From assembly GCA_021768625.1 (NCBI GenBank), contig JAETUM010000005.1, positions 1 through 64,000 of the forward strand: a DNA stretch of 64,000 nt, given 5' to 3'. Source of the DNA: Candidatus Stoquefichus sp. (GTDB taxonomy: Bacteria > Bacillota_I > Bacilli_A > Erysipelotrichales > Coprobacillaceae). Below are positions 8,173 to 23,884 of this stretch, piece by piece (positions within the stretch are counted from its first letter, which is position 1; the number at the start of each line of letters is the position of its first letter). Under the pieces are notes generated by a model, which was not told the origin of the DNA, did no database searches, and saw nothing but the letters and a program-made list of their open reading frames with translations. The position numbers and the translations under genes are program-made.

Positions 8173-9477
8173 ATGTCAATTTTATCTGGAATAGGAAAAG
8201 TGAAATTAGACGGTCAAAAGGGTTTAACAAAAGATAAACCTATTTTACCAATCGAAGCACCAGATGTTGTTTATATTCCCCTTGTCATAGGTACAGCAAC
8301 AGATTTTGATGTCCATGTAAAAGAAGGAGATCATGTTTGTATTGGAACAAAATTAGCAACTCGTAAGAGTATGTATGTTCCTATTTATTCATCTGTTTCT
8401 GGAACTGTCAAAGGAATAGAAAGACGTATGCATGCTTCAAGAAGATTACAAGAACATATTGTGATTGAAAATGATCATAAAGATGAAAGAGTGAAAGCTC
8501 TAGATATTCAAGATCCTGATTCAATGTCACAAGAGGATGTTTTTAATGCTATTAAGGAGTTAGGATTAGTTGGATTAGGAGGTTCAGGTTTTCCAACTTA
8601 CATTAAATATTCTAATCCTGAAAATATTGAAACAATTCTCATTAATGGAGTTGAATGTGAACCATTTTTAACAAGTGATCATTTAGCTATGAAGAGAGAT
8701 GTAAAAGCATTATTTGATGGTGTTCATTTCTTGATTAAAGCAGCAAATGCTAAAAATGCTATTATTGCAATTAAAGAACATAAGCCTGATTTGATGGAAT
8801 TATTAGTTGAAGAAGCTAAAAATTATGATAACATTGAACCACGTGAAGTTCCTGATCGCTATCCAATGGGATGGGAAAGAGTCGTTGTTGAAACTGTATT
8901 TAAAAAAGAATATGATAAGTTACCTGCTGAAATAGGTGTTATTGTTAATAACTCATCAACTGCTATTGCACTATCTAAAGGAATTAGAAATGGCGAACCA
9001 ATAACTCATCGTGTTGTCACTTTCTCAGGAAATGGATTAAAAAATCCACAAAATGTAGAAGTTGCAATAGGAACACCAGTCAATTATATTGTTGAAAAGA
9101 TTGGTGGTTATATAGATGATGATTGTGATGGTTTCTTATTAGGTGGAGGACCTATGATGGGAAAATCTGTCGCAAATGATTCATTTGTGATTTATTGTCA
9201 TAACAATGCTATTACTGTTATGAAAAAAGAAAATATAAAACCTTTACCATGTTTAAAATGTGGTGAGTGTACTTTACATTGTCCTGCTCATTTACAACCT
9301 GTTCGTATTATGCAAGCAGAAAAAGCAGCTAATGTTGAGTTGATTGAAAAATTAGATGTGACTCGTTGTGTTGAATGTGGTATGTGTACTTATATTTGTC
9401 CAAGTAAGATAGAAGTGACAGATATGGTAGCAAAGGCAAAACGTCGTTATCAATTAGCACAAAGAAGAAAAGGGTAG
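8173..9477 (+). CDS. rnfC: Rnf electron transport complex subunit RnfC
   Basis: RnfC is the peripheral NADH-side subunit of the Rnf complex, which couples ferredoxin:NAD+ electron transfer to ion pumping. The 434-aa protein has an N-terminal barrel-like part, the GLGGSGFPTYIK loop typical of the NADH/FMN-binding fold, and two 4Fe-4S motifs near the C-terminus (CLKCGECTLHCP and CVECGMCTYICP). Length is normal for Gram-positive RnfC. It is the first gene of a tight C-D-G-E-A-B operon; 13 bases separate it from rnfD. Confidence 0.95.
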   Translation: MSILSGIGKVKLDGQKGLTKDKPILPIEAPDVVYIPLVIGTATDFDVHVKEGDHVCIGTKLATRKSMYVPIYSSVSGTVKGIERRMHASRRLQEHIVIENDHKDERVKALDIQDPDSMSQEDVFNAIKELGLVGLGGSGFPTYIKYSNPENIETILINGVECEPFLTSDHLAMKRDVKALFDGVHFLIKAANAKNAIIAIKEHKPDLMELLVEEAKNYDNIEPREVPDRYPMGWERVVVETVFKKEYDKLPAEIGVIVNNSSTAIALSKGIRNGEPITHRVVTFSGNGLKNPQNVEVAIGTPVNYIVEKIGGYIDDDCDGFLLGGGPMMGKSVANDSFVIYCHNNAITVMKKENIKPLPCLKCGECTLHCPAHLQPVRIMQAEKAANVELIEKLDVTRCVECGMCTYICPSKIEVTDMVAKAKRRYQLAQRRKG

Positions 9478-9490
9478 AGAGGGGTATATT

Positions 9491-11650
9491 ATGAAGATTA
9501 CTATGCAAAGAACATCACCAAACTATCGTCAAAAACTCTCTACACATCGTATTATGAGAGATTTAACAATTGGTTTATTGGTGATTGTTGCTTGTTCATT
9601 AATTTGTCAATATATGATTGTAAAGTCAAACCCTATGCAAAGTGTAACAAAAGCAGCACTTATTTATGGTGTTTCTGTAGGTGTTGCACTTATTACAGAA
9701 ATTGTATGGGCTTTGATTCATAAATTAGATATTATCGAGCATTTAAAGAATAGTTTTCCATTGGTAACATCAATTATTTTTGCTTTAACATTACCAATCG
9801 GAACACCTTTATATGTTGTTGCTATAGGTTCATTTATTGCTATTTTCTTTGGAAAATTAGTTTATGGAGGATTTGGACAAAATATCTTTAATCCTGCTTT
9901 GGTAGGACGTGTTGTTGTTCATTTAGCCTATGGTGCATCATTAACAACAAGTTTACCAGTTAATGGTATTGATATTGCTACAAAAGCAACTCCTGCAACA
10001 ATGCTTGCTGGAACAAATTGGTTAGGTGGAGAAGGATTCACTTATAATTTATTTGATTTGTTTATTGGAACACATGCAGGTGCTTTAGGTGAAACATGTG
10101 CATTAGCAATATTGATTGTTGGTATTATTTTAGTTATCAGACATGTGTTTGATGCAAGAATACCAGTTGCTTATTTAGGAACTGTTCTTGTATTAAGTGA
10201 AGTATTCGCTTTAGTGAATGGTTTAGATCCTATTACTTATCCACTTGTTCATTTATGTATTGGTGGAGTTGTCTTTGGTGCAGTCTTTATGGCTACAGAT
10301 CCAGTGACATCACCATCCAGTCCATTAGGAAAAATTTTATATGGTATTTGTTTAGGATTCTTAACAATGATTATTCGTTTGAAAGCAAATTATCCTGAAG
10401 GTGTTTTATTCTCAATCTTAATTATGAATATGTTTACACCATTTATTGATTCAATGATTTTGGGAAGAACAAGTGAAAATACAACAAAACAATGGATAGC
10501 TATTGCATTAAGTTTATTAATTGCTGTAGCATGTGTCTTTGGTATTGGACAATCTTTGAAGAATCAATTAGAGACAGAAAAACAAGAAGCTATTAAGGCT
10601 GAAGAAGAAAAGAAAAAGAAAGAAGCTGAAGAAGCTGCTAAGAAACCAAAATGGAATGTTTTAAGTAAGATTAAGGGTGGATATTTAATGGAAACTTATG
10701 GATTTGGTGGTGAAGATAAACCAATGAAAGTTGAAGTTAAGTTATCTAAAGACAAAATTACTTCTGTAAAGGTTGTAGAATATACTGGAGAGACAGCAGG
10801 ATATGGGTTAGATTTAATTGAAGGTAAATCTACAAATGAAAAAGCCAAAGCTTTCTATGATAAAGTATTGAAAAATGGAATTGCAGTGAAAGATGTTGAA
10901 GGCGTTGATACTGCAACAGGAGCTACAATGACAACTAATGGTATTATGAATGCTATTAAAGGTGCTATTGAAGCGTACGAAAGTGAGCCAGTTGTTAAAG
11001 GCAATGTATATACTTATACATTAACAGCTAAAGGATTTGGTGGAGAAAATAATCCAATGAAGGTTGAAGTTTCTATTGATAAAGCAAAATCACAAGTTAC
11101 TTCTGTGAAAGTTGTTGAATATGCTGGAGAAACGGCAGGTTATGGTTTAGATCTTATTGAAGGAAAATCAACAAATGAGAAAGCCAAAGCTTTCTATGAT
11201 AAAGTCCTTAAAGGTAAATTTGCAACAAAAGATGTTGAAGGTATTGATACTGCAACAGGAGCAACTTTAACTACTAAGGGTATTATTGATGCTATTAATC
11301 AAGCTATTGAGAAAGTGAATGCTATCTTAGTTCCTAATAAAGATGGTTTTTATGAAATCAAAGCGAATGGTTTTGGTGGAGAAAATAAACCTATGACTGT
11401 ATTAGTTAAGGTTAATGGAGATAAGGTTACTGTAAAAGTAAAAGATTATGCTGGAGAAACAGCAGGATATGGATTAGATTTAATTGAAGGTAAATCTACA
11501 AATGAAAAAGCCAAAGCTTTCTATGATAAATATTTAAAATCATCATTTAGTAAGAAAGATATAGAAGGTGTAGATACTGCAACAGGAGCAACAATGACTA
11601 CGAAAGGAATCGTTGAAGCAATTGAAAAAGCAATTGCTACAGCTAATTAG
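9491..11650 (+). CDS. rnfD: RnfD fused to three C-terminal FMN-binding domains
   Basis: Residues 1 to ~360 are a standard membrane RnfD. They contain many helices, the KATPATML segment near residue 167 where RnfD usually carries covalent FMN, and the conserved MATDPVTSPSSPLGK loop. A charged EEEKKKKEAEEAAKKP linker then leads to three tandem FMN_bind domains of about 110 residues (roughly 396-496, 505-608 and 617-719). Each has GFGGE(D/N)(K/N)PM, GETAGYGLDLIEGKS and a TATGAT(M/L)TT motif matching the S/T-GAT covalent flavinylation site. RnfD normally ends at 310-360 residues, so this 719-aa form has doubled in length. RnfG follows as a separate gene. Confidence 0.93.
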   Translation: MKITMQRTSPNYRQKLSTHRIMRDLTIGLLVIVACSLICQYMIVKSNPMQSVTKAALIYGVSVGVALITEIVWALIHKLDIIEHLKNSFPLVTSIIFALTLPIGTPLYVVAIGSFIAIFFGKLVYGGFGQNIFNPALVGRVVVHLAYGASLTTSLPVNGIDIATKATPATMLAGTNWLGGEGFTYNLFDLFIGTHAGALGETCALAILIVGIILVIRHVFDARIPVAYLGTVLVLSEVFALVNGLDPITYPLVHLCIGGVVFGAVFMATDPVTSPSSPLGKILYGICLGFLTMIIRLKANYPEGVLFSILIMNMFTPFIDSMILGRTSENTTKQWIAIALSLLIAVACVFGIGQSLKNQLETEKQEAIKAEEEKKKKEAEEAAKKPKWNVLSKIKGGYLMETYGFGGEDKPMKVEVKLSKDKITSVKVVEYTGETAGYGLDLIEGKSTNEKAKAFYDKVLKNGIAVKDVEGVDTATGATMTTNGIMNAIKGAIEAYESEPVVKGNVYTYTLTAKGFGGENNPMKVEVSIDKAKSQVTSVKVVEYAGETAGYGLDLIEGKSTNEKAKAFYDKVLKGKFATKDVEGIDTATGATLTTKGIIDAINQAIEKVNAILVPNKDGFYEIKANGFGGENKPMTVLVKVNGDKVTVKVKDYAGETAGYGLDLIEGKSTNEKAKAFYDKYLKSSFSKKDIEGVDTATGATMTTKGIVEAIEKAIATAN
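10672..11648 (+). repeat. Three tandem FMN-binding domain repeats inside rnfD
   Basis: The equivalent GGAGA(G/A)AC sites start at 10787, 11126 and 11453, a period of about 330 bp. The core coding for GETAGYGLDLIEGKSTNEKA is nearly unchanged in all three units, even at many third positions, which points to recent duplication or ongoing gene conversion. Confidence 0.9.
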
Positions 11651-11662
11651 GAGGTAAGGAAT

Positions 11663-12196
11663 ATGAATAAAATAGTAAAATTAACTCTTTTCCTTGCAGT
11701 TGTTGCTGGACTTTCAGGAGCTGCTTTATCATTTGTTTATCAAATGACTGATCCAATTATTCAAGAAGCTGCTATTGCAAGTGAAAAAGAAAACTTAGTA
11801 AAAATATATACTTCTGGTGAAGAATTTAAAGCACTTGATACAGGTTTGGCTGATTATACTGCTTTACAAGGATGTTATGAAGCAAGCAGTGGTGGAACTG
11901 TAAAAGGTTATGTTTATAAATGTAGTGTCACTGGATATGGTGGAGCAAGTACTCCAATTGTTTATTTAGTTGCATTAGATCAAGATGGAACTTATAAAGG
12001 ATATGAAGTGATTGATTGTAGTGGAGAAACAAGTGGCTTTGGTTCTAAAGTTGCTGAAGATAGTTTCAAAAATGGAATTGTAGGAAAAAATATTGGTGAT
12101 TCTATTGATACAATTTCTGGAGCAACAATTTCTTCATCTGCTGTTGTTGATGGAATTAATCAAGCAACAGAACATTATAATGCTAATTTTAAATAA
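11663..12196 (+). CDS. rnfG: Rnf electron transport complex subunit RnfG
   Basis: RnfG carries a covalently bound FMN on the outer face of the membrane. The 177-aa protein has one N-terminal membrane helix (residues ~5-27) and an FMN_bind domain with GETSGFGS and SGATISS, whose Thr is the expected flavin attachment site. Length is normal to slightly short. GGAGG lies upstream, 12 bases after rnfD. With the three domains on RnfD, the complex would have four extracytoplasmic-type FMN_bind modules. Confidence 0.95.
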   Translation: MNKIVKLTLFLAVVAGLSGAALSFVYQMTDPIIQEAAIASEKENLVKIYTSGEEFKALDTGLADYTALQGCYEASSGGTVKGYVYKCSVTGYGGASTPIVYLVALDQDGTYKGYEVIDCSGETSGFGSKVAEDSFKNGIVGKNIGDSIDTISGATISSSAVVDGINQATEHYNANFK

Positions 12197-12209
12197 GGAG
12201 GGGACATAG

Positions 12210-12869
12210 ATGAAAAAATTAGATATTTTCAAAAAAGGTTTATTTATTGAAAATCCAATCTTTGTTTTATTGCTAGGTCTATGTTCAGCCTTAGCAATTA
12301 CAACATCACTTACAAATGCGATTGGTATGGGAATGGCTGTTACTTGCGTATTAATTATGAGTAATGTGATTATTTCTTTATTAAGAAATATTATTCCTAA
12401 TGAAATTAGAATTCCTGTTTTTATTGTTGTTATTGCAACATTAGTTAAATGTGTTCAAATGTTAATGAATGCATATACTCCAGCTTTATATGAATCACTA
12501 GGAGTATTCATTCCATTAATTGTTGTTAACTGTATTATTTTAGGTAGAGCTGAAAGCTTTGCTTCTAAAAATGGTATTGTTGATTCTTTATTAGATGCTT
12601 TAGGAATGGGATTAGGATATACTTTTGCAGTATTAGTTATTTCATTTTTTAGAGAACTTATTGGAACTGGTGGATTAAGTTTATATAATCCATTTGATGC
12701 AAGTCAAGTCATCTTTGATGTTAAGATTTTTGCAGATTATGCAGTTTCATTATTTACACAACCTGCTGGAGCATTTATGACTTTAGGTTGTATACTTGCT
12801 TTTGTTCAATTCTTAAAGATAAAAAAAGAAAAGAAAGCAAAGAAATTAAAAGAAGCGGAGGTAAAGTAG
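12210..12869 (+). CDS. rnfE: Rnf electron transport complex subunit RnfE
   Basis: RnfE is one of the two related six-helix membrane subunits that hold the central iron-sulfur site of Rnf. The 219-aa protein has helices throughout, conserved NP near the N-terminus (ENPIFVLLLGLCSALAI), a cysteine in GLCSA and one in VVNCIILGRAE, the pair expected to ligate the intramembrane cluster. AGGAGGGG precedes the start. The tail is basic and rich in lysine. Confidence 0.95.
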   Translation: MKKLDIFKKGLFIENPIFVLLLGLCSALAITTSLTNAIGMGMAVTCVLIMSNVIISLLRNIIPNEIRIPVFIVVIATLVKCVQMLMNAYTPALYESLGVFIPLIVVNCIILGRAESFASKNGIVDSLLDALGMGLGYTFAVLVISFFRELIGTGGLSLYNPFDASQVIFDVKIFADYAVSLFTQPAGAFMTLGCILAFVQFLKIKKEKKAKKLKEAEVK

Positions 12870-12870
12870 T

Positions 12871-13443
12871 ATGGAATTAGTCAGTTTATTTATTGGATTA
12901 ACTTTTGTTAATAATGTTGTGTTAAGTAAATTCTATGCTATTTGTCCATTATTAGGTGTTTCTAAGAAACCTAAAAATGCTTTAAACATGGGATATGCTG
13001 TTACATTTGTTATTTTTGTATCATCAATTGTGACTTGGTTAATATACAATTGTATATTAGTACCATTAAAAATTGAATATCTAGATTTAATTACATTTAT
13101 CTTAGTAATTGCTTCACTTGTGCAATTTGTTGAAATGTTCTTAAAGAAAACAAGTCCAGAGATTTATAAATCAATGGGTGTTTATTTACCACTTATTACA
13201 ACAAACTGTGCTGTATTAGGTGTTGCATTAGATAATATTAGTGCAGGATATAATTTAATTGAAGCTGCTGTAGCAGGTTTAGCTGTATCAATTGGATTTA
13301 CAATTGTTATTTATATTTTCGCTACAATTAGAGAAAGATTAGATATTGCTAATGTTCCAGAAAGTTTTAAAGGAACTCCAATTGCATTAATCACTGCTGG
13401 GATTATGGCTTGTGCTATAGCTGGAATCGCAGGTCTTGTTTAA
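12871..13443 (+). CDS. rnfA: Rnf electron transport complex subunit RnfA
   Basis: RnfA is the partner of RnfE. The 190-aa protein has six predicted membrane helices, the NNVVLSKFYAICPLLGVS motif near the N-terminus and LITTNCAVLGVAL in the middle; the two cysteines are the expected cluster ligands. It starts one base after rnfE ends, and its stop codon overlaps the ATG of the next small gene (TAATG), so translation is coupled along the operon. Confidence 0.95.
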   Translation: MELVSLFIGLTFVNNVVLSKFYAICPLLGVSKKPKNALNMGYAVTFVIFVSSIVTWLIYNCILVPLKIEYLDLITFILVIASLVQFVEMFLKKTSPEIYKSMGVYLPLITTNCAVLGVALDNISAGYNLIEAAVAGLAVSIGFTIVIYIFATIRERLDIANVPESFKGTPIALITAGIMACAIAGIAGLV

Positions 13444-13616
13444 TGAATATTTGGGCATTTGTTTGGATGGCTATTTTAGTAGCTGTCTTTATTGGAACAT
13501 ATTTATGGAATAAAAATACACCTCAACCAGAGGGGTGTGAAGATATGAGTGAATGTAGTGGATGCAATAATATTGCATGTGCACATCATAGTGCTCATCA
13601 TGAGGAGGAAAAATAA
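13443..13616 (+). CDS. 57-aa membrane-anchored Cys/His-rich peptide inside the rnf operon
   Basis: The ATG overlaps the rnfA stop (TAATG) and the last base overlaps rnfB. The product has one N-terminal membrane helix (residues ~4-22), a short linker, then Cys 32, 38, 41 and 46 and four histidines (AHHSAHH) in a hydrophilic tail. The arrangement recalls FeoB-associated Cys-rich membrane proteins, but the operon position argues for a role in Rnf. The cysteines could hold an iron-sulfur cluster or another metal; this is inference. A later GTG or TTG start would remove the helix and is less likely. Confidence 0.75.
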   Translation: MNIWAFVWMAILVAVFIGTYLWNKNTPQPEGCEDMSECSGCNNIACAHHSAHHEEEK

Positions 13617-13927
13617 TGAACATTAGTGCTGTATTGGCTTTGGTTGTTATTGGAGCAGTACTTGGGTTGATTTTGGGAATTGCTAATAAGTATCTTATTG
13701 TAGAAGAAGATAATCGTATTGGTGATGTAACTGAAATGCTTCCTGGGGCAAATTGTGGAGCATGTGGTTATCCAGGATGTTCTGGTTTTGCAACTGCTTT
13801 GGTTGAAGGAGAAGCAAGCAAAGTATCTACTTGCTTAGTAAGTAATGCTGAAGCAAGAGAAAAAATTGCTACTTATTTAAATGAAACTCCAGGACCAGAT
13901 GGAACAACTGTTAATGTCACAATTTAG
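13616..13927 (+). CDS. rnfB: Truncated RnfB with only the membrane anchor and first cluster motif
   Basis: RnfB normally accepts electrons from ferredoxin through several 4Fe-4S clusters. This 103-aa version keeps the N-terminal helix (residues ~4-24), the ANCGACGYPGC motif (Cys 47, 50, 55) and Cys 73, giving C-x2-C-x4-C-x17-C for one cluster. It then ends after about 30 residues. Clostridial RnfB usually continues with ferredoxin-type domains to 250 residues or more. A terminator begins within 20 bases, and no downstream frame continues the protein, so the short form appears real rather than frameshifted. Confidence 0.9.
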   Translation: MNISAVLALVVIGAVLGLILGIANKYLIVEEDNRIGDVTEMLPGANCGACGYPGCSGFATALVEGEASKVSTCLVSNAEAREKIATYLNETPGPDGTTVNVTI

Positions 13928-13944
13928 TTAAAGAATTATAATAG

Positions 13945-13986
13945 GACTTGATTTCTTACTTGTTAAGAAGTCAGGTCTTTTTTATT
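13945..13986 (+). terminator. Terminator of the rnf operon
   Basis: GACTTGATTTCTT pairs with AAGAAGTCAGGTC (with G-U pairs), followed by TTTTTTATTTG. Confidence 0.75.
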
Positions 13987-14125: not shown

Positions 14126-14281
14126 ATGAAAAAAGTTTTAAAAGAATTACAAGATTATTGCTTAAAGGTGGTGTCAGGATTATTCTTATATGTAGGTATA
14201 ACAACTGTTAACTCTTCATGTAATGCTATCTTTCATCAACCAGAAGAAAGCAAATCATTAGAACGTTTTAAAAATATCTAA
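14126..14281 (+). CDS. agrD: AgrD-like cyclic autoinducing peptide precursor, 51 aa
   Basis: A 51-aa product with the three-part AgrD layout. An amphipathic N-terminal helix (residues 1-25, ending KVVSGLFLYVG) is followed by a core with one cysteine (NSSCNAIF, Cys 32 to Phe 36) and an acidic, proline-containing tail (HQPEESKSLERF). Cys four residues before the junction would form the usual five-residue thiolactone ring (C-N-A-I-F). Its stop codon overlaps the agrB ATG by one base. It has a strong AAGGAGG site and the LytTR-type repeat upstream. The exact cleavage points are predicted by analogy only. Confidence 0.85.
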   Translation: MKKVLKELQDYCLKVVSGLFLYVGITTVNSSCNAIFHQPEESKSLERFKNI

Positions 14282-14841
14282 TGAATATAATTAATCAATT
14301 AATTGATCATAAGATTATTGCAGAAGAGGATAGGGATATATATGAATATGGATATGTTAATTTTAGATTATATGCTATTTTTCTCATATTTGTATTGTTA
14401 GGAAATATCATATTAAAGAATTATTTATATACGATCATATTTTTAATATGTGTATTTCAATTAAGAAGATTTAGTGGGGGATTACATTTAAGTGACTCAA
14501 AAAGTTGTTTGTTTTTATCAACAGTTGTCACACTTATTATTCCGATGCTGTGTCAATTTTATGATTTTAATATTATATATAAGTTATTCATTCAAGGTAT
14601 TATGCTGTTAATATACATATTTCTTCCGGTCGTTGATACACGTAATAAAATTTTAAATGATAATGAAAAGGTTGCTTATAAAAGAAAGTTAATGATATAT
14701 GTTTTTATTGATAATATCATTTTAATGATTTGTTTGTTGATGAAATTCAATGGTATATATATGGTTATTTTATATTCAATGCTTTTAGTACTTATATCTA
14801 ATATTGTTGGTTTATTATTAAAAAAGATAAATATTATGTAA
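14281..14841 (+). CDS. agrB: AgrB-like accessory membrane peptidase
   Basis: AgrB removes the AgrD tail and forms the thiolactone. This 186-aa membrane protein contains RRFSGGLHLSDSKSC. The catalytic pair is His 69 and Cys 76, seven residues apart as in staphylococcal AgrB (His 77/Cys 84), preceded by the conserved RRFSGG. About five or six hydrophobic segments are visible. Translation is coupled to agrD. No agrC or agrA follows; a hairpin follows instead. Confidence 0.92.
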   Translation: MNIINQLIDHKIIAEEDRDIYEYGYVNFRLYAIFLIFVLLGNIILKNYLYTIIFLICVFQLRRFSGGLHLSDSKSCLFLSTVVTLIIPMLCQFYDFNIIYKLFIQGIMLLIYIFLPVVDTRNKILNDNEKVAYKRKLMIYVFIDNIILMICLLMKFNGIYMVILYSMLLVLISNIVGLLLKKINIM

Positions 14842-14889: not shown

Positions 14890-15369
14890 ATGAAGGGAAA
14901 ACAAATAAAGAGATTATTAATTGCTTTTGTTATTTGTATGATAGCTATAACTTCTGTGAAAGCATATGTGGATTATCATGCAAATGCAGTACAAGTGGAT
15001 AATGGATATTATCCAAATGGAGAGTTTGGTAAATTAGACAAGAAGAAATCTCCTATTGTTAATATGACAATTTTATTAAAATTGTTAAATACAGCTAATT
15101 TTTGTGATGAAGATTGGTTTGAACAAGTTAGAGCATTATTATTTATTATGGGAGCTCAAGTTGATATGCATATTGAAGATGATGATGAATTTGTTCATGA
15201 ACTGATGGTTAAACAAAAGAGAATCGTTATTGCTTTAAAGGCTATTGAGGGAAAATATCCAGCAACACAGGTAAAACTGGAAGATATTGACGAATTAGAA
15301 GCAGCATATAATGATTATCATGATTATTATTATCAACATTATAATATGGGAGGTGTTGATAATGAATAG
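14890..15369 (+). CDS. Small secreted or membrane-anchored protein preceding rhs
   Basis: A 159-aa protein starting at ATG 14890 behind AAAGGAGAA; an in-frame start further upstream would lie inside the hairpin and has no RBS. It has a basic N-terminus and a hydrophobic signal or anchor (residues ~6-25, LLIAFVICMIAITSVKA). A soluble helical part rich in acidic and aromatic residues follows, ending in a Tyr-rich tail. No family is recognised. Its last eight bases overlap the rhs start, so the two are translationally coupled. It may help export or hold the Rhs protein; that is inference. Confidence 0.75.
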   Translation: MKGKQIKRLLIAFVICMIAITSVKAYVDYHANAVQVDNGYYPNGEFGKLDKKKSPIVNMTILLKLLNTANFCDEDWFEQVRALLFIMGAQVDMHIEDDDEFVHELMVKQKRIVIALKAIEGKYPATQVKLEDIDELEAAYNDYHDYYYQHYNMGGVDNE

Positions 15370-18300
15370 AATGATGAAATCTATAAAAAAGGTATTACTT
15401 ATTATTGTTACTGTTACTATTTTTATATCATCCTTTCAAATCTTTGGAGATGTTTATGCAGTAGAGAATAATAAGATTGATGATGAGAATACACATGGAG
15501 AATATAACAAAGATATTCAAGAAGAAGCGAGTCACCAAACGCAAATCAATAAAACAGATCCAGATGTTATTATCAAAGAACCAACAATTGTTGAGGACAC
15601 AAGTCGTTTTGATGATGAGGATGAATTAATTAATGAAAGAACAGAAAATTCTAAAACATATCAGCTAGATTCTGGGAAATATGTTACAGAATATTATTTT
15701 CAACCTGTTCATAAAAAAGAGGGAGAAAAGTATGTTGAGATTGATAATACTTTGGAAAAACAATCAAGTTTTTTTAGAAGTGCTCAATCATCATATTCTA
15801 ATAAAGATGGCTTATATGATTTTCAAGTGAATAATGGTTATATTGAAATAAGTGATTCAAATGATCAAATATTAACTATGATTCCAGAAGGAAATTTAAA
15901 GAATTTTGCAGTGAAAGAAAATGTTATTTTATATTCTTCAATATTAGATAATGTTGATCTTGAATATAGAGTTGAATCAAATTATATTACTCAAAATATT
16001 TATATAAATGGACAAGTCAATATTGATAGATATTCATTTCAATTAAATGGTGATCATTTCATTGCTGAAGTTAATGAAGAAGGGAATTTAGTTTTAAAGA
16101 AGGATACAGAGGTTATTTATACTTTTTTAAAACCATATTTAAAAGATAAAGAAGGAGTCAGAAATGAAGAAACTTCATATGAAGTAAAAAAGAATGATGG
16201 TGGATATGAAGTCACAATTGTTTTTAACGAGAAATGGTTGAATAAAAGTCAATTGGTTTATCCAGTTGCTTTAGCAAGTCAAGTAGAAGTGAATAATGCT
16301 GATGTTACAGAATTAACGTCTTCTTATATTCGTTCTGGTAGACCAGAGATAACAAGTCAATATTCTGATTTATTTGTAGGATATGATGATAATTATTATG
16401 GTGGTCAGGGTAGTGATATTAAAATAGCCAGAGCATTTATTTATTTTAAAATGCCTGATATTGGAAAGAATCAAAGAATAGAAAGTGCAAGTTTAAAATT
16501 ATATAAAGAACAGGACTTAGCTGATAACGAACTTAATGAGATTGATGTTTATAGTACAAATTCATATGTTGATCCAAGTACAGTGAATTGGAATAATCAG
16601 CCAAAGGATAAAACAAAAATATCAACCAAAGCTTTTACAAAGCCTAAAGGATGGAAGACTTTTGATATAACAAAACATGTAGAGAGTTTGATGAAAGGTG
16701 AGAAAAGAACATTAGTTTTACAAGTTACAGATGAAAGTTCAAAATATCATTGTAATGTTTTCAATACAGAATCATCAGCTTATTTACCAAAAGTAGAAAT
16801 TTATCATAGTGATGATTATGATATAGATCCATCATTAGATTTAGAAAAATTTGATAACACATTAAGAGTTTATGCAAAAGATGGACAATATTTTGAAGCA
16901 TTAAGTATGGAAGGAATAGCAAAGCCATATTCAAGTGTTCATTTTGATTTATATGCTAAAACAGGTGAAAAAGATTATTCTCTTATAAAATCATTAAATG
17001 CTGAGGACAAAGCTTCGCCTTATTTTATTGATCCCATACATATCAGTCATCCAATCAAAGATGTTCAACAATACAAAAAAGAAGAGGTCAATTATACAAC
17101 AAAGTATTTAAAATTTGGAGATATTCCAAAGTATGATACATTCTATGAATATAGAATGAAAGTAGAATACAATGGCAAGAAATCTACAAAAACATTAATA
17201 ACAGATGGTTTTATCTTATATAAAGTCAAATTGGGAGATAATCTTAAAACAATCGCTTCACATTATGGATTAAAAACAAATCAAATTATGAAAGATAACA
17301 ATATGAAATCTTCTAAGATTAAAGAAGACGATGTTTTATTCTTAAGATTTGCAAAAGATAATCCTAAAATACCAAAAGATGTCTATAAACCGCCAGTTAG
17401 AATCAGTACATATCAGGCAAAATATGTTTATAGAGGACCATCATGTTATGGATCATGTTCAGCAGGGGATCCAGTGAATACAAGTATTGGAAATTTCTAT
17501 CATGAATCAAAAGATTTCACAATGACTGATTTTGATGACTTGTTTTTAAGCAGAGTTTATAACTCTTATGGGGAAGATAACTCATCTATTTTCGGTATGA
17601 ATTTCTCTAGTAACTTTGAACAATATATTACCTATACAAAAGAAGATAATATGTTATTTTTTAGAGGTGATGGGAAAATATTAGAAATTTCTAAAAAAGA
17701 TGGGAAATATCAACCAAAGCTATCTGATAAGATAAAGGTTAAAGTTAATGATAAAACAACAGAGATTTATGATAAAACAGATGATATGACTTATATTTTT
17801 AATGAATATGGAATGTTATATCAAATCAGAACACATAATGGTTTTATCTCTCAAATTTATTATGATGATTATGGAATGATTGATTATATTCAAATAGGGA
17901 AAAAGAAAGTTAACTTTGAATATAATTCATATCATTTAGTGAAGTCTATAACATTACCAAATGATACCAAGATCCAATATGTTTATAATGCAGATAGGCA
18001 GTTAACTGAATTCATAGATGCGAATGGAAATAAAGAAAAATATGCTTATGATGAAAATGGAAAAATAAAAAGCATTACAGATAAAAAAGGAGCTGTTCTA
18101 GCTAATAACACGTATGATCAAAATGGTGTTGTTTTATCACAAAAAGATGCAAATGGAAATCTTGTAGAATTTTCCTATAATACTGGTTCTACAAAAGTAA
18201 CTTATAATGGGAAAGAAAGCGAAACATATGCATTAAACAGTGAATATAAGGTCTCTCGTATTTCTTATTCTGATGGAACATCAAAGTCATATACATATGA

Positions 18301-21300
18301 TGATGCAGGTTATTTGACTTCTGAAACAGATGAAAAAGGACAAAAAACAACTTATACATATGATAGCAATCACAATTTAACAGTCCAAGAAAATCCAGAT
18401 GGAACAAGTGAAAAGTATACATATGATAGTCAAGGAAATGTGACATCAATCACAAATAGAGACGGTACAAAAGAAACATATCAATATGATAATAACAATA
18501 ATCTTATTTATAAAGATAATAGTGATAGTCAAGGTATTCATTATGTTTATAATGATAAGAATTTAGTTATTAAGGAAACAAATGCTTTAGGAGTTTCTAA
18601 AGATTATGAATACAAAGACAATCAAATTGTTAAAATAACACATAGCAATGGACTTGTAGAATCTTTTGTCTATGATTCAATGGGAAATGTTATCAAGGAA
18701 TCTGATAATAAAGGACGTTCTACAAGCTATGTTTATGATAACAATAATCAGATTATCCAAAAAACAGATAGTTATGGAAATAGTGAATATTTCAAATATG
18801 ATGGAAATGGCAATGTTATTGAATCTATTGATAAATTAGGTTCAAAGATTACAAATACATATGATAAGAATAATAATCTTATCAAGACATCACAAGGTGG
18901 TCTTTCAACATCTAAGACTTATGATTATAAAAATAGAATGATCAGTGAAACGGATGAAGAAGGAAATACAGTTCGTTATGTTTATGATGTCAAAGATCAA
19001 GTTATTCAAGAAATAGATAAATATGGAAATATAAAAACAAATGAATATGATGTTTCTGGAAATCTCATAAAAACAACTGATGAAAAAGGGAATACAATAA
19101 CATATACATATAAAAATGATCAAGTCATCAAAGAAACAGACTCTTTAGGTTTAACAACATCATATGAATACGATCAATATAATCGTGTTATTAAAGAAAT
19201 CAATCCTCATAATAAAGTCATAACAACACAATATGATAGTCATGGAAATATTATAAAGACAGTCAATGAAAGAGGATTAATAAATACCAAAACATATGAT
19301 CAATATGATAGATTAGTGAAAGAAGTTAATGAACAAGGAATAATAATTACTTATACATATGATAAGTATAATCAACTTATTAAGAAGCAAGAAGATAACA
19401 AAGTAACAACATATGAATATGATGTTTATGGAAATCAAGTTAAAGAAACAGATACTTATGGACATACTCAAACAAAACAATACGATAAGTTAAATAGATT
19501 AGTGAAAGAAACGGATGAATTATCTGGAACAACAATTCATAAGTATGATGCACAAGGAAATGAAATTGAAACAATTGATGCAAATGGACATTCACAAAAG
19601 AAAGTCTATAATACAGATAGTTCATTAATGAAAGAAATAGATGCATTAGGAAATGAAACAATTATTTCTTATGATTCATTAGGAAGAGTATCAAAGCAAA
19701 CAGATGCATATGGAAATATAACTTCTCATACATATGATAAGTATGGAAATGTTCTTTCAACAGCTATCAATGATAAAGTCATTGAAGAAAAAGCATATGA
19801 TCAATATGGAAGAGTTGTTCAAACAACACAATTAAACAATATTGTTTTCACAACATATGATACACATGATCGTATTCTTAAAGAAGAGAACAAGACAACA
19901 GGTCTTATTACAAATAATGAATATGATAAGTATTCTAATGTTATAAAAACATATGATAATGGTGAAAAAGAAGAAACATATATCTATGATGACTATAACC
20001 AACTTGTATCATCTACAGATGCATATGGAAGAACATCTACAAATGTATATGATAAGTATGGACAAGTCATAGAAAAAGTTAATGAAGCGAATGAAAAGAC
20101 ACTTACTCAATATGATAAGTATGGAAATATAATCAGTGAAACAGATCATTTAGGATTAAAAACACAATACCAATATGATTTACTTCAAAGAAAAACAAAA
20201 GAAATTGTTAATAATGAAAAAACATTAACATATACTTATGATGCAAAAGGACAGTTGTTAAAGACACATGATTCTTCAACGAACACAGTAACGTCAAATA
20301 CATATGATGCAGTAGGTAATGTCTTAACATCAACAGATGCATTGAATCATCAAACAACATATGTTTATGATGCTAAAAATAGAGAAATCAAGACAACTGA
20401 TGCACTAGGGAATAGTACTTCTAAAGTTTATGATATTTATGATCATGTCATTAAGGAAACAGATGCATTAGGAAATAGCAAACAAACAAAGTATGATGTT
20501 TTTGGTAATGTTATACGAGAAGTTGATGAAAGAGGATTTAAGACAGAATATAAGTACAATGACAATCTTCAAAATATTGAAATTATTGATAAGAAGGGAA
20601 ATTCTTCAACATTTACTTATAATAAACAAGGATATCTTTCAAAACAAACAAATCAAAGTGGATATTCAACATTATTTGAATATGATTTATATGGACAAAA
20701 AGTTAAGGAAACAGATCCTAATGGAAATATAAGTACTTTTGAATATGATAAGTTAGGGAATGTTGTTAAGGAAACAATTCCAAACAAAATAACAGTTCAT
20801 CAATATGATGAATTAGGAAGACTTATTTCTACTCAAGAAAATGATGTTTATAAGATTCAAAATACATATAATGATAAGAATCAAGTGATTGAATCAACCA
20901 ATGCAATGAATTATAAAACATTATATACTTATGATATATATGGTAATGTTTTAACAGAGGATTTTGCAGGATATAAGACAATGAATACTTATGATCTTCA
21001 TCAAAATCTTATTAAGAAAGTTGAAAATGATCTTAAAACAACAACATATACATATAATGCATTAAATCAAGAAATAGAAACAAAGATTAATGATGTTATT
21101 CAAACAAAGAATCAATATGATGCTGTTGGAAATATCATTTATAAGTATGAAGAAGGAGTACAAACAAAATATACTTATGATAAACTCAACAGACAAAAAG
21201 AGATCTATTTTAATGAACTGGATGATAGAAGTCAGTATGTATTGGTAGGTTCTTACCAATATGATGAAACTGGAAATATCATAGAAGTGAAAGATGCATA

Positions 21301-23884
21301 TAATCATGTTGTTAAACGTTCATATGATGCATTTAATCAGTTAATATCTGAAACAAATGCGAATGGATATACAACAAAGTATGCTTATGATAAAGTAGGA
21401 AATATTGCAAAGGTACAAGATCCAAAAGAAAGAGTTGTTGAATATCTTTATGATGGAAACAATAATCAAATTAAAAAGATTATTAATAAAAAAGAAGCTG
21501 TTTATGAATATGATGAAAATAATCATATGATATCTTCAAAAGATGAATATGGTTTAAAAGAAAAATATCAATATGATATTGATGGTAACTTGTTATCATA
21601 TACAAAGAATGATGGAACAACTATCAAATCAACATATGATGCTGAGGGTAACCAATTAACTGAAGGAGATAGACAATTTACTTATAATGCCTTTAATCAA
21701 GTCCTTACAGCTAAATACAAGGGAAAAACAACATCCTATGAATATGATAGCCTCAATCATTTAAAGAAGGTTACAGACACAAAGAATCAGGTTGTAGAAT
21801 ATACTTATGATGTTTATGGGAATAAAACATCAATGAAGTATAAAAACAATACGATCACCTATACTTATAATCAATTCAATAAGATTGACAAAGTATCACA
21901 AAACGGGAAACAATTTGCATCATATACATATGATGCAAGAGGAAATACTTTAACTTTCACAAGAGGAAATTATACAACAACATATGAGTATGATAACCTT
22001 TCAAGAAGAACAAAGTATACGCATCAAAAAGGAAATGATATATTATCAACATATGAATATAAGTTTGATCCAAACAATAATATCATTTCAGAAACAATTA
22101 ATGGGAAAACAAATACTTATACATACAATGAAAATGATGAACTCGCAACATCATCTAAATATATCAATAACAAAGCTATTCAAACAACATATCAATATGA
22201 TGTATTTGGAAACAAAATAGAAAAGACATCAGATGGAACATCTAAAGTCTATAAGTATAATGATAAAAATCAATTAACAAGTATCAATGATTCTTCAAAA
22301 GGATTAACCACAATCTATTATGATAAAAATGGAAATATGAGAGATATCTACTATGCTGGTGGATTTATAGAACATTATACATATGATGAATACAATCAAT
22401 TAACAGAGCTTAAAACAAATAAAATATCTATCTATACATATGAATATGATGCCCAAGGTGATAGAATATCACAAAAGGCAGAAACAAAAGATAGATTTGA
22501 ATATGGTTCAAAATATGAAGATACATGGTATGATGATCTTTCACAGATGGGTATTGAAGAAATCGAAGATATGCTTCAATCAATGGATAGTCATACAGCC
22601 TTTGATAATCTTAGACATGTTGTGAAGAATAGAGGAGCATGTAAAGGGAACTTTGGAAAAGATAATGTCAATGATATTGAATATGGAACTCCATCAAGAA
22701 TAGAAAACTTCACAAGTGATTATCTATTAGATAAGAGCGAAGAGTATACACAGATACTTGCTGATAATGATAAGATCAATATCTATGGTGAAGAAAGAAT
22801 AGCCACAAATCAATGGAGTACATATAACTATTATATGACAGGGCTCAATGAGAGTGTTTATACGACAACAGAAACAACATCATGGAGTGAAAAGCTTACA
22901 GATATTGAATATACAGATACAGGCTTAACAGACGACATAGACAAAGGCTATGCATATAATGGAGAAGCTAAGGATGTATCAGGACTTATCTATCTTAGAG
23001 CAAGGTACTACAATCCTCGTATAGGACAATTTGTACAGATAGATACATATACAGGAGAAGATGAAAACATTGCTTCACAGAATAGATACTGTTATACTAT
23101 AAATAACCCATATAAGTATGTGGATTCTAGTGGACATATGATATTAGAAGCTATTCTTGCATTTATAGCTAAGCATGGTGTAGAACTTGCAATATTATTT
23201 TTTGGAACAGTTTTAGTAGCAGAGGCAACTAAGAAAAAGGATATTAATTTTGAAATACCATTGCCAACAATAAGTATACCAAAACCTACTTTAAAAGATG
23301 TTACTAAAAATATAGTGAAAACTGTAGTAAGAAAAAATCCTATAGTTGCAGTTGCAGCAGTAACAGGTGCTGGAGTAGGAGTGTCTCTGGCAGGCAGCAC
23401 TTCTACAGCCTTAAAGAAAATTCCTCAGCCATGTCCTGATGGATTAGGATGGAATAAGATTCCTAAAGATATATTGCCATATATAGGGGGCATTATAGGT
23501 GGATATGCTTTTGTAAATGAATTTTTAAGTAAATTGCATCGAATAAGAAGATATAAAACTGATCAGGAACATCATATTGTGCCACACAGTGCTTGGGATG
23601 AATGTGGAAGTGTTAAGCATGATTTCTATCTAAATATTCCTAGAGAAGTTTTGGATAGAAATCTTGTCGGTAAAGTTCAGGATAGTAATAATAAGGTTAT
23701 GATTTCTAATATGGTGCATAGATATATTCATACTAAATTATATTATCAATCTTTATATTATAATTTAGATAAAAAGTTGCTAGGTGAAAGGTTTGCGTAT
23801 CAAGCAAAAGTGATTTTAATATTAGGTAAGTATCGTATGATTTTAAAAGGATTATCTGACACAGTAAAGAAATTACTTTTATAA
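15362..23884 (+). CDS. Secreted Rhs/WapA-like polymorphic toxin with HNH (AHH-like) C-terminal tip
   Basis: About 2,840 aa from ATG 15362, which follows GGGAGGTG. Order: signal peptide (residues ~1-31), long N-terminal region, DNRLRE-type domain (~318-481), LysM-like module (~618-668), DUF6531-type start of the Rhs shell (~700-790), dozens of YD repeats (~835-2360), and the Rhs core (AYNGEAKDVSGLIYLRARYY, then NPYKYVDSSGH, ending near 2590). The variable tip of ~250 aa has hydrophobic segments and then EHHIVPHSAW (from residue 2736), an Asn-containing stretch and HRYIHTKLYY, resembling the AHH/HNH-EndoVII nuclease superfamily. It resembles B. subtilis WapA in being Sec-exported. Nuclease activity is inferred. 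Confidence 0.92.
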   Translation: MNRMMKSIKKVLLIIVTVTIFISSFQIFGDVYAVENNKIDDENTHGEYNKDIQEEASHQTQINKTDPDVIIKEPTIVEDTSRFDDEDELINERTENSKTYQLDSGKYVTEYYFQPVHKKEGEKYVEIDNTLEKQSSFFRSAQSSYSNKDGLYDFQVNNGYIEISDSNDQILTMIPEGNLKNFAVKENVILYSSILDNVDLEYRVESNYITQNIYINGQVNIDRYSFQLNGDHFIAEVNEEGNLVLKKDTEVIYTFLKPYLKDKEGVRNEETSYEVKKNDGGYEVTIVFNEKWLNKSQLVYPVALASQVEVNNADVTELTSSYIRSGRPEITSQYSDLFVGYDDNYYGGQGSDIKIARAFIYFKMPDIGKNQRIESASLKLYKEQDLADNELNEIDVYSTNSYVDPSTVNWNNQPKDKTKISTKAFTKPKGWKTFDITKHVESLMKGEKRTLVLQVTDESSKYHCNVFNTESSAYLPKVEIYHSDDYDIDPSLDLEKFDNTLRVYAKDGQYFEALSMEGIAKPYSSVHFDLYAKTGEKDYSLIKSLNAEDKASPYFIDPIHISHPIKDVQQYKKEEVNYTTKYLKFGDIPKYDTFYEYRMKVEYNGKKSTKTLITDGFILYKVKLGDNLKTIASHYGLKTNQIMKDNNMKSSKIKEDDVLFLRFAKDNPKIPKDVYKPPVRISTYQAKYVYRGPSCYGSCSAGDPVNTSIGNFYHESKDFTMTDFDDLFLSRVYNSYGEDNSSIFGMNFSSNFEQYITYTKEDNMLFFRGDGKILEISKKDGKYQPKLSDKIKVKVNDKTTEIYDKTDDMTYIFNEYGMLYQIRTHNGFISQIYYDDYGMIDYIQIGKKKVNFEYNSYHLVKSITLPNDTKIQYVYNADRQLTEFIDANGNKEKYAYDENGKIKSITDKKGAVLANNTYDQNGVVLSQKDANGNLVEFSYNTGSTKVTYNGKESETYALNSEYKVSRISYSDGTSKSYTYDDAGYLTSETDEKGQKTTYTYDSNHNLTVQENPDGTSEKYTYDSQGNVTSITNRDGTKETYQYDNNNNLIYKDNSDSQGIHYVYNDKNLVIKETNALGVSKDYEYKDNQIVKITHSNGLVESFVYDSMGNVIKESDNKGRSTSYVYDNNNQIIQKTDSYGNSEYFKYDGNGNVIESIDKLGSKITNTYDKNNNLIKTSQGGLSTSKTYDYKNRMISETDEEGNTVRYVYDVKDQVIQEIDKYGNIKTNEYDVSGNLIKTTDEKGNTITYTYKNDQVIKETDSLGLTTSYEYDQYNRVIKEINPHNKVITTQYDSHGNIIKTVNERGLINTKTYDQYDRLVKEVNEQGIIITYTYDKYNQLIKKQEDNKVTTYEYDVYGNQVKETDTYGHTQTKQYDKLNRLVKETDELSGTTIHKYDAQGNEIETIDANGHSQKKVYNTDSSLMKEIDALGNETIISYDSLGRVSKQTDAYGNITSHTYDKYGNVLSTAINDKVIEEKAYDQYGRVVQTTQLNNIVFTTYDTHDRILKEENKTTGLITNNEYDKYSNVIKTYDNGEKEETYIYDDYNQLVSSTDAYGRTSTNVYDKYGQVIEKVNEANEKTLTQYDKYGNIISETDHLGLKTQYQYDLLQRKTKEIVNNEKTLTYTYDAKGQLLKTHDSSTNTVTSNTYDAVGNVLTSTDALNHQTTYVYDAKNREIKTTDALGNSTSKVYDIYDHVIKETDALGNSKQTKYDVFGNVIREVDERGFKTEYKYNDNLQNIEIIDKKGNSSTFTYNKQGYLSKQTNQSGYSTLFEYDLYGQKVKETDPNGNISTFEYDKLGNVVKETIPNKITVHQYDELGRLISTQENDVYKIQNTYNDKNQVIESTNAMNYKTLYTYDIYGNVLTEDFAGYKTMNTYDLHQNLIKKVENDLKTTTYTYNALNQEIETKINDVIQTKNQYDAVGNIIYKYEEGVQTKYTYDKLNRQKEIYFNELDDRSQYVLVGSYQYDETGNIIEVKDAYNHVVKRSYDAFNQLISETNANGYTTKYAYDKVGNIAKVQDPKERVVEYLYDGNNNQIKKIINKKEAVYEYDENNHMISSKDEYGLKEKYQYDIDGNLLSYTKNDGTTIKSTYDAEGNQLTEGDRQFTYNAFNQVLTAKYKGKTTSYEYDSLNHLKKVTDTKNQVVEYTYDVYGNKTSMKYKNNTITYTYNQFNKIDKVSQNGKQFASYTYDARGNTLTFTRGNYTTTYEYDNLSRRTKYTHQKGNDILSTYEYKFDPNNNIISETINGKTNTYTYNENDELATSSKYINNKAIQTTYQYDVFGNKIEKTSDGTSKVYKYNDKNQLTSINDSSKGLTTIYYDKNGNMRDIYYAGGFIEHYTYDEYNQLTELKTNKISIYTYEYDAQGDRISQKAETKDRFEYGSKYEDTWYDDLSQMGIEEIEDMLQSMDSHTAFDNLRHVVKNRGACKGNFGKDNVNDIEYGTPSRIENFTSDYLLDKSEEYTQILADNDKINIYGEERIATNQWSTYNYYMTGLNESVYTTTETTSWSEKLTDIEYTDTGLTDDIDKGYAYNGEAKDVSGLIYLRARYYNPRIGQFVQIDTYTGEDENIASQNRYCYTINNPYKYVDSSGHMILEAILAFIAKHGVELAILFFGTVLVAEATKKKDINFEIPLPTISIPKPTLKDVTKNIVKTVVRKNPIVAVAAVTGAGVGVSLAGSTSTALKKIPQPCPDGLGWNKIPKDILPYIGGIIGGYAFVNEFLSKLHRIRRYKTDQEHHIVPHSAWDECGSVKHDFYLNIPREVLDRNLVGKVQDSNNKVMISNMVHRYIHTKLYYQSLYYNLDKKLLGERFAYQAKVILILGKYRMILKGLSDTVKKLLL
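17870..22470 (+). repeat. YD-repeat array encoded in rhs
   Basis: Dozens of degenerate units of about 20-21 codons of the form YDxxGNxxxxxDxxGxxxxYxY. The DNA looks repetitive (TATGAT, GGAAAT, ACAGAT), but the units differ in sequence and stay in frame, so this is protein structure (the Rhs beta-cocoon) rather than a satellite. Confidence 0.9.

What the first reader, a model, noticed from the sequence alone, without database searches (positions are those of the whole stretch)
13443..13927. Rnf complex with minimal RnfB and a Cys-rich companion peptide
Seen: RnfB is 103 aa with one C-x2-C-x4-C-x17-C motif and no ferredoxin domains, and a terminator follows at once. A 57-aa single-helix peptide with four Cys and several His is encoded between rnfA and rnfB with overlapping stops and starts. 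Known: RnfB usually has several 4Fe-4S clusters and is the ferredoxin entry point. Inference: electrons enter differently, by direct docking of ferredoxin or through the small peptide, or the donor is not ferredoxin.
Basis: partly seen in the sequence, partly recalled or inferred. Interest (0 to 1): 0.78.

Follow-up and report, generated by a model that had tools for sequence, protein, structure and literature searches.

The report
Minimal RnfB sodium/proton-pump variant
A whole branch of gut and environmental Bacilli/Mycoplasmatota-type bacteria runs the Rnf energy-conserving membrane pump with an RnfB subunit cut down to its anchor and one iron-sulfur domain, usually together with an undescribed tiny cysteine-rich membrane protein, so the part thought necessary to take electrons from ferredoxin is dispensable there.

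Summary
Window 8173-13927 is a complete rnfCDGEA-pep-B operon; RnfB is 103 aa (one helix plus one PF04060 [4Fe-4S] domain), a strong terminator follows at 13943-13979, and a 57-aa helix-plus-4-Cys peptide is coupled between rnfA and rnfB by TAATG overlaps. It is not a sequencing error or a local loss. The genome holds no other Rnf-type rnfB, and 92 short-RnfB complexes from the class form one clade in an RnfA+RnfE tree. Long-RnfB relatives nest among Clostridia, so they look horizontally acquired. The peptide is a real, purifying-selected protein family without a Pfam entry. It occurs in 175 of about 194 short-RnfB genomes but only 5 of 194 genomes without RnfB. In some families it is encoded away from rnf, and its last three Cys (CX2CX4C) are the invariant core. 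59 of 60 short-Rnf genomes tested encode pyruvate:ferredoxin oxidoreductase, and no ferredoxin gene sits in these operons. Best reading: soluble ferredoxin reduces the single swinging RnfB cluster directly; the peptide is an Rnf-dedicated Fe/Fe-S accessory acting in trans, like NqrM or RseC without being a detectable member of either. Its exact role is inferred. New variant of a known kind; I found no description of it in the searched literature.

The parts
8173..9477 (+). rnfC, 434 aa: NADH/FMN (51K-like) domain, SLBB, two 4Fe-4S motifs; NAD+ side intact
   Evidence: PF01512, PF13375, Fer4 hits; TIGR01945 over cut-off
9491..11650 (+). rnfD, 719 aa, with three FMN_bind domains fused at the C-terminus (each with a TGAT flavinylation motif)
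   Evidence: PF03116 1e-82 plus three PF04205 stretches; RnfD >450 aa in 35/68 short-RnfB loci and 0/48 conventional loci
11663..12196 (+). rnfG, 177 aa, one FMN_bind domain (SGAT motif)
12210..12869 (+). rnfE, 219 aa, membrane subunit sharing the intramembrane [2Fe-2S] site with RnfA
   Evidence: PF02508, TIGR01948
12871..13443 (+). rnfA, 190 aa
   Evidence: PF02508, TIGR01943 over cut-off
13443..13616 (+). 57-aa peptide: N-terminal transmembrane helix (3-24), then N-x2-T-P-x-P-x-G-C-x5-C-x2-C-x4-C-x-H; ATG overlaps rnfA stop
   Evidence: family alignments A1/A4; AF2 helix 3-24, Cys part low confidence; dN/dS
13616..13927 (+). rnfB, 103 aa: transmembrane helix plus single PF04060 [4Fe-4S] domain, conserved C-terminal YLNxTPGPDG tail, no ferredoxin domains; ATG overlaps peptide stop
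   Evidence: AF2 mean pLDDT 94.8, best PDB match A. woodii RnfB 9eri_B
13943..13979 (+). intrinsic terminator closing the operon (16-pair stem, T tail)

Best explanation
This is an Rnf ferredoxin:NAD+ oxidoreductase of a distinct, monophyletic type in which RnfB consists only of the membrane anchor and the flexible single-[4Fe-4S] domain. Shown: the C-terminal multi-cluster input domain is missing throughout a single class-wide clade, most likely lost once, and everything downstream of that single cluster is kept (the RnfA/E Cys sites, RnfG and RnfD flavinylation motifs, RnfC with its clusters and NADH site). Inferred: reduced soluble ferredoxin, made by PFOR, docks directly on the RnfB [4Fe-4S] domain, which then swings to the RnfA/E [2Fe-2S] cluster; from there the path is the usual one (RnfG, RnfD, RnfC, NAD+), with the extra FMN domains on RnfD offering a side exit to extracytosolic acceptors. 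Inferred with less certainty: the 57-aa peptide is an Rnf-dedicated, membrane-anchored Fe or Fe-S binding accessory that helps load or keep the clusters of RnfB and RnfA/E. It would play the part NqrM plays for Nqr, and that RseC may play for Rsx, and it can be encoded in trans.
For: Operon rnfCDGEA-pep-B with short RnfB in all 20 first loci read, two families. In 80 named loci every peptide-bearing locus has short RnfB, and no conventional RnfB (262-710 aa) has the peptide. 92 short-RnfB complexes are one side of one branch (support 99) while long-RnfB class members sit inside Clostridia; rooted RnfA tree nests short inside long. Only residues ~5-90 of solved RnfB are covered; the short protein folds confidently to its end. 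PFOR in 59/60; no ferredoxin gene beside 55 short operons. A review gives RnfB a flexible [4Fe-4S] domain that reduces RnfA-E, and a separate C-terminal 2-7-cluster acceptor domain (PMC12174285). Peptide: 175/180 peptide-positive genomes have RnfB, 5/194 RnfB-negative genomes have the peptide; unlinked copies beside pgm-ung or the dCMP deaminase-lspA cluster; RseC effectively absent from the class; invariant last three Cys as in RseC, whose CX2CX5C binds [4Fe-4S] and which contacts RsxB/RsxD (PMC11729352); NqrM is predicted to deliver Fe to NqrD/E (PMC6209661).
Against: No biochemical data exist for any short-RnfB Rnf here; a direct ferredoxin contact is not shown. PFOR was not counted in Rnf-negative relatives, so it shows that ferredoxin is available, not that it is the donor. 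If the peptide matured only the RnfA/E cluster, conventional Rnf would need it too, yet long-RnfB members of the class lack both it (18/19) and RseC (one weak sub-cut-off hit). The peptide is undetected in about 18 short-RnfB genomes, including all 5 of family f12, although at least two of these have a diverged TM-CxxC ORF in its place. No detectable homology to NqrM or RseC.
Confidence: 0.55

Rival explanations
1. The peptide is a redox subunit: its 3-4 Cys bind an Fe-S cluster or iron centre that receives electrons from ferredoxin and passes them to the RnfB cluster, compensating for the missing domain.
For: Occurs with short RnfB and hardly ever with long RnfB; translationally coupled between rnfA and rnfB; invariant CX2CX4C; the analogous RseC Cys domain holds a [4Fe-4S] cluster and binds RsxB (PMC11729352).
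Against: Gene unlinked in families f4, f6, f17 and f22, whose rnf operons are otherwise complete; undetected in about 10% of short-RnfB genomes; first Cys lost in 9 of 58 scored copies and spacing varies.
Confidence: 0.28
2. The short-RnfB complex is not a ferredoxin:NAD+ reductase: it mainly moves electrons between NADH and extracytosolic acceptors through the extra FMN domains on RnfD, with RnfB as a vestigial or regulatory inlet.
For: RnfD with FMN_bind extensions in 35/68 short-RnfB loci, 0/48 conventional; multi-flavinylated RnfG has been proposed to bifurcate electrons to outside acceptors (PMC8238504).
Against: RnfB [4Fe-4S] Cys are invariant throughout the clade; half of the clade has RnfD without the extension; PFOR in 59/60.
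Confidence: 0.12
3. The missing ferredoxin domains are supplied by a separate protein encoded elsewhere (a split RnfB).
For: Would restore the standard path; genomes are large enough to hide such a gene.
Against: No ferredoxin-type ORF within 2.5 kb of 55 short operons; own genome has no second Rnf-type RnfB; the domain would have to be unlinked in all lineages of the clade. A standalone ferredoxin-domain gene elsewhere was not searched genome-wide.
Confidence: 0.08
4. Frameshift, assembly error or pseudogene.
For: None beyond the short length.
Against: Same length and conserved C-terminal tail in many families; terminator directly after the stop; purifying selection.
Confidence: 0.01

Closest known systems
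Conventional Rnf (C. tetanomorphum 7zc6, A. woodii 9eri, A. vinelandii 8ahx)
   Same: Six core subunits, gene order C-D-G-E-A-B, PF04060 domain on a membrane helix, RnfC NADH/FMN/4Fe-4S side.
   Different: RnfB ends at about residue 103, with none of the 2-7 C-terminal [4Fe-4S] clusters; extra peptide; RnfD often with FMN_bind extension.
NqrM (PF04400, DUF539), maturation factor of Na+-NQR
   Same: From the literature: small membrane protein dedicated to an Nqr/Rnf-type complex, predicted to deliver Fe to the NqrD/NqrE site.
   Different: No peptide scanned scores against PF04400 even at E<=1; no sequence relation shown.
RseC (PF04246), accessory of Rsx/Rnf
   Same: Membrane-anchored cytoplasmic Cys motif with three conserved Cys and one variable first Cys, spacing CX5CX2CX5C against CX5-6CX2CX4C; often encoded apart from rnf.
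   Different: RseC is about 140-190 aa with two helices and an N-terminal Cys domain; profile comparison gives probability 1.2, so no homology shown.
[quoted passage not shown]
   Same: About 50 aa, one helix then a Cys cluster; 3/23 members give weak hits, best E 0.0014.
   Different: Below family level, not next to feoB in the loci read, different Cys spacing (Cx3-5Cx2-3Cx6-8C, PMC8749426).

Membership tests
Rnf complex (core) | rnfC, D, G, E, A subunits in one operon | tested here: met
Rnf complex (core) | RnfB with membrane helix and PF04060 [4Fe-4S] domain | tested here: met
   PF04060 E 2.4e-14; 9eri_B, 7zc6_B, 8ahx_B by sequence, 9eri_B by fold at weak E 5e-3
Rnf complex (core) | RnfB C-terminal multi-[4Fe-4S] ferredoxin-accepting domain | tested here: not met
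   Absent; TIGR01944 score 67.3, cut-off 68.7
Rnf complex (core) | ferredoxin:NAD+ oxidoreductase activity coupled to Na+ or H+ | not testable with these tools
   needs biochemistry
NqrM (PF04400) | match to the family profile | tested here: not met
   23 members scanned, no hit at E<=1; PF04400 not found in the own genome (though nothing rang in the controls)
NqrM (PF04400) | required for cluster insertion into the D/E (A/E) membrane pair | not testable with these tools
   inference only
RseC (PF04246) | about 130-position profile with two helices and N-terminal Cys domain | tested here: not met
   one helix, C-terminal Cys; hhalign probability 1.2
RseC (PF04246) | three conserved Cys CX2CX5C with a dispensable first Cys | tested here: inconclusive
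   similar CX2CX4C core with variable first Cys; too short to show homology
FeoB_associated (PF12669) | profile match and feoB neighbourhood | tested here: not met
   window peptide no hit; best member 0.0014; neighbours are rnf or housekeeping genes

The most novel reading that the evidence does not exclude
The short-RnfB clade is a separate type of Rnf in which a single swinging [4Fe-4S] domain is the whole electron inlet, and the peptide is a new family of Rnf-specific iron-sulfur proteins (an 'RnfM') that either relays electrons or builds the clusters, replacing RseC in this lineage.
Probability: 0.5. Interest if true: 0.75.

Novelty: new variant of a known kind. Interest (0 to 1): 0.6.

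Why it matters
Structural work on Rnf treats the C-terminal cluster chain of RnfB as the ferredoxin acceptor. A large clade that lost it, yet keeps every other redox part, gives a natural minimal system for asking what ferredoxin actually docks on and what the extra clusters add. The peptide is a candidate answer to an open question: which protein handles Fe-S loading for Rnf, since NqrM is known only for Nqr and RseC's role is disputed. Many of these bacteria are common gut Erysipelotrichales.

Tried and rejected
A second full-length rnfB in the genome: rejected. Sequencing error or pseudogene: rejected by relatives and selection. Peptide as a known family: Pfam, NCBIfam and PDB searches gave nothing convincing. 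NqrM sequences for a profile-profile comparison could not be obtained: PF04400 rang in none of the 21 genomes nor the 14 controls. Peptide strictly bound to the rnf operon: rejected, unlinked copies exist. RseC as the general partner replaced by the peptide: only partly fitting, because 17 of 32 named conventional-Rnf genomes and nearly all long-RnfB class members show no RseC either. AF2 of the peptide gave only the helix. Kostyrko 2016 not held; literature searches for short RnfB in Erysipelotrichia found nothing.

Full report
Observation. The window carries one operon, rnfC-D-G-E-A-peptide-B (8173-13927), ending in a 16-pair terminator at 13943-13979. rnfA, the peptide and rnfB are joined by TAATG stop-start overlaps. 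RnfB is 103 aa with Cys47, 50, 55 and 73 (C-x2-C-x4-C-x17-C), a PF04060 domain and no ferredoxin domain. The genome's only other PF04060 protein is a 387-aa two-ferredoxin, hydrogenase-like protein flanked by an RsbW-like ATPase and a PHP-domain gene.

Is it local? No. Short RnfB of about 90-107 aa (up to 131 aa if the longest upstream start is taken) occurs throughout the order and class. All 20 loci first read, from two families, have rnfCDGEA-peptide-B. Named examples are Candidatus Stoquefichus massiliensis, Massilimicrobiota, Holdemanella biformis, Solobacterium, Acholeplasmataceae and Anaeroplasmataceae. Long RnfB (260-286 aa) in the class is confined to a few genera.

History. In a tree of RnfA+RnfE from 156 complexes all 92 short-RnfB complexes lie on one side of one branch (support 99), and the class members with long RnfB fall inside Clostridia clades, as expected after horizontal transfer. 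When RnfA and RnfE root each other, the short clade nests inside long RnfA sequences (short RnfA one clade, support 97); the RnfE half is inconclusive. So the truncation is most likely a single derived event. The trees are quick ones (FastTree; short IQ-TREE search) and some long branches meet.

What is missing. Against solved RnfB chains of 174, 274 and 333 aa the short profile covers only residues ~5-90. A 2025 review describes RnfB as a helix, a flexible domain with one [4Fe-4S] that reduces the RnfA-E cluster, and a C-terminal domain with two to seven [4Fe-4S] clusters that accepts electrons from ferredoxin (PMC12174285). The short protein is exactly the first two parts. AF2 folds all of it at mean pLDDT 94.8, and its own C-terminal tail (YLNxTPGPDG) is conserved across the order, so it is a finished protein. 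The same domain occurs in the corrinoid Fe-S protein, which by established knowledge is reduced directly by ferredoxin; that is a precedent for direct docking.

Donor. PFOR is present in 59 of 60 short-Rnf genomes from many families, including this one. This shows that reduced ferredoxin is made; Rnf-negative relatives were not counted as a control. No ferredoxin-type ORF accompanies 55 short operons (its two pattern hits are a split rnfC and an unrelated frame).

Peptide. The family has one helix, then N-x5-P..C..CX2CX4C; across diverse lineages N23, P29 and the last three Cys are invariant and the first Cys is nearly so. dN/dS is well below 1. In the same 395 genomes the peptide is found in 180 and RnfB in 201; by my comparison of the two lists 175 genomes have both, only 5 have the peptide alone, and 7 of the 26 RnfB-only genomes have long RnfB. 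Small mycoplasma-type genomes lacking both add to this contrast. Inside the window's own order the listed genomes split cleanly: 33 with short RnfB all have it; 3 with long RnfB and the listed genomes with none lack it. Among 19 long-RnfB class members one has it, next to an ApbE-like gene. No convincing copy occurs in 32 named genomes with conventional Rnf. In families f4, f6, f17 and f22 rnfA is followed directly by short rnfB, and the peptide gene lies elsewhere, between pgm and ung or before a dCMP deaminase-lspA cluster. Second copies in f14 lack the first Cys. Some 'missing' cases have a diverged helix-CxxC ORF in the usual place (L192, L191).

Mechanism. An accessory that works from several genomic places, tolerates loss of one Cys and is tied to Rnf fits a maturation or cluster-tending factor. 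NqrM plays that part for Nqr. RseC is needed for Rsx function, has three conserved Cys that hold a [4Fe-4S] cluster, and contacts RsxB and RsxD (PMC11729352). RseC is effectively absent from this class (14/395 weak helix-only matches, one marginally over the cut-off) but present in 15 of 32 named conventional-Rnf genomes. The resemblance to RseC is a motif, not demonstrated homology, and no NqrM match was found. The strongest argument for an electron relay instead is that the peptide goes with short, not long, RnfB. I put maturation or tending at about 0.45, relay at 0.28, and leave the rest to other roles.

Verdict. A real, ancient variant of Rnf with a minimal RnfB and an undescribed partner family. 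The structural and phylogenetic parts are shown; the electron entry and the peptide's role are inferred. The literature searched holds open-licence papers only, so prior description elsewhere is possible.

Noticed in passing
window 9491-11650: RnfD is fused to three FMN_bind domains with TGAT motifs; such extensions occur in 35/68 short-RnfB loci and 0/48 conventional ones, so flavin chains on RnfD, not only RnfG, are a trait of this clade.
   Followed up: partly
L244 6004-6558: A family f9 RnfB of 184 aa with two tandem PF04060-type domains and no ferredoxin domain, a possible way of lengthening the relay.
   Followed up: no
L292 (G148 contig 6): A diverged peptide homologue next to an ApbE-like flavin transferase in a genome with long RnfB.
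   Followed up: partly
L237-L241, L245-L247: In family f22 the peptide sits between phosphoglucomutase and uracil-DNA glycosylase genes in the loci read; reason unknown.
   Followed up: no
G000 contig 95, about 21.8 kb (L002): 387-aa protein with two ferredoxin motifs and a C-terminal PF04060 domain beside RsbW-like and PHP genes, probably a hydrogenase-like sensor cluster.
   Followed up: no
window 14126-14841 and 15311-23884: Downstream: short peptide plus AgrB-like protein (quorum-sensing type) and a 2857-aa RHS-repeat protein with an HNH-like end.
   Followed up: no
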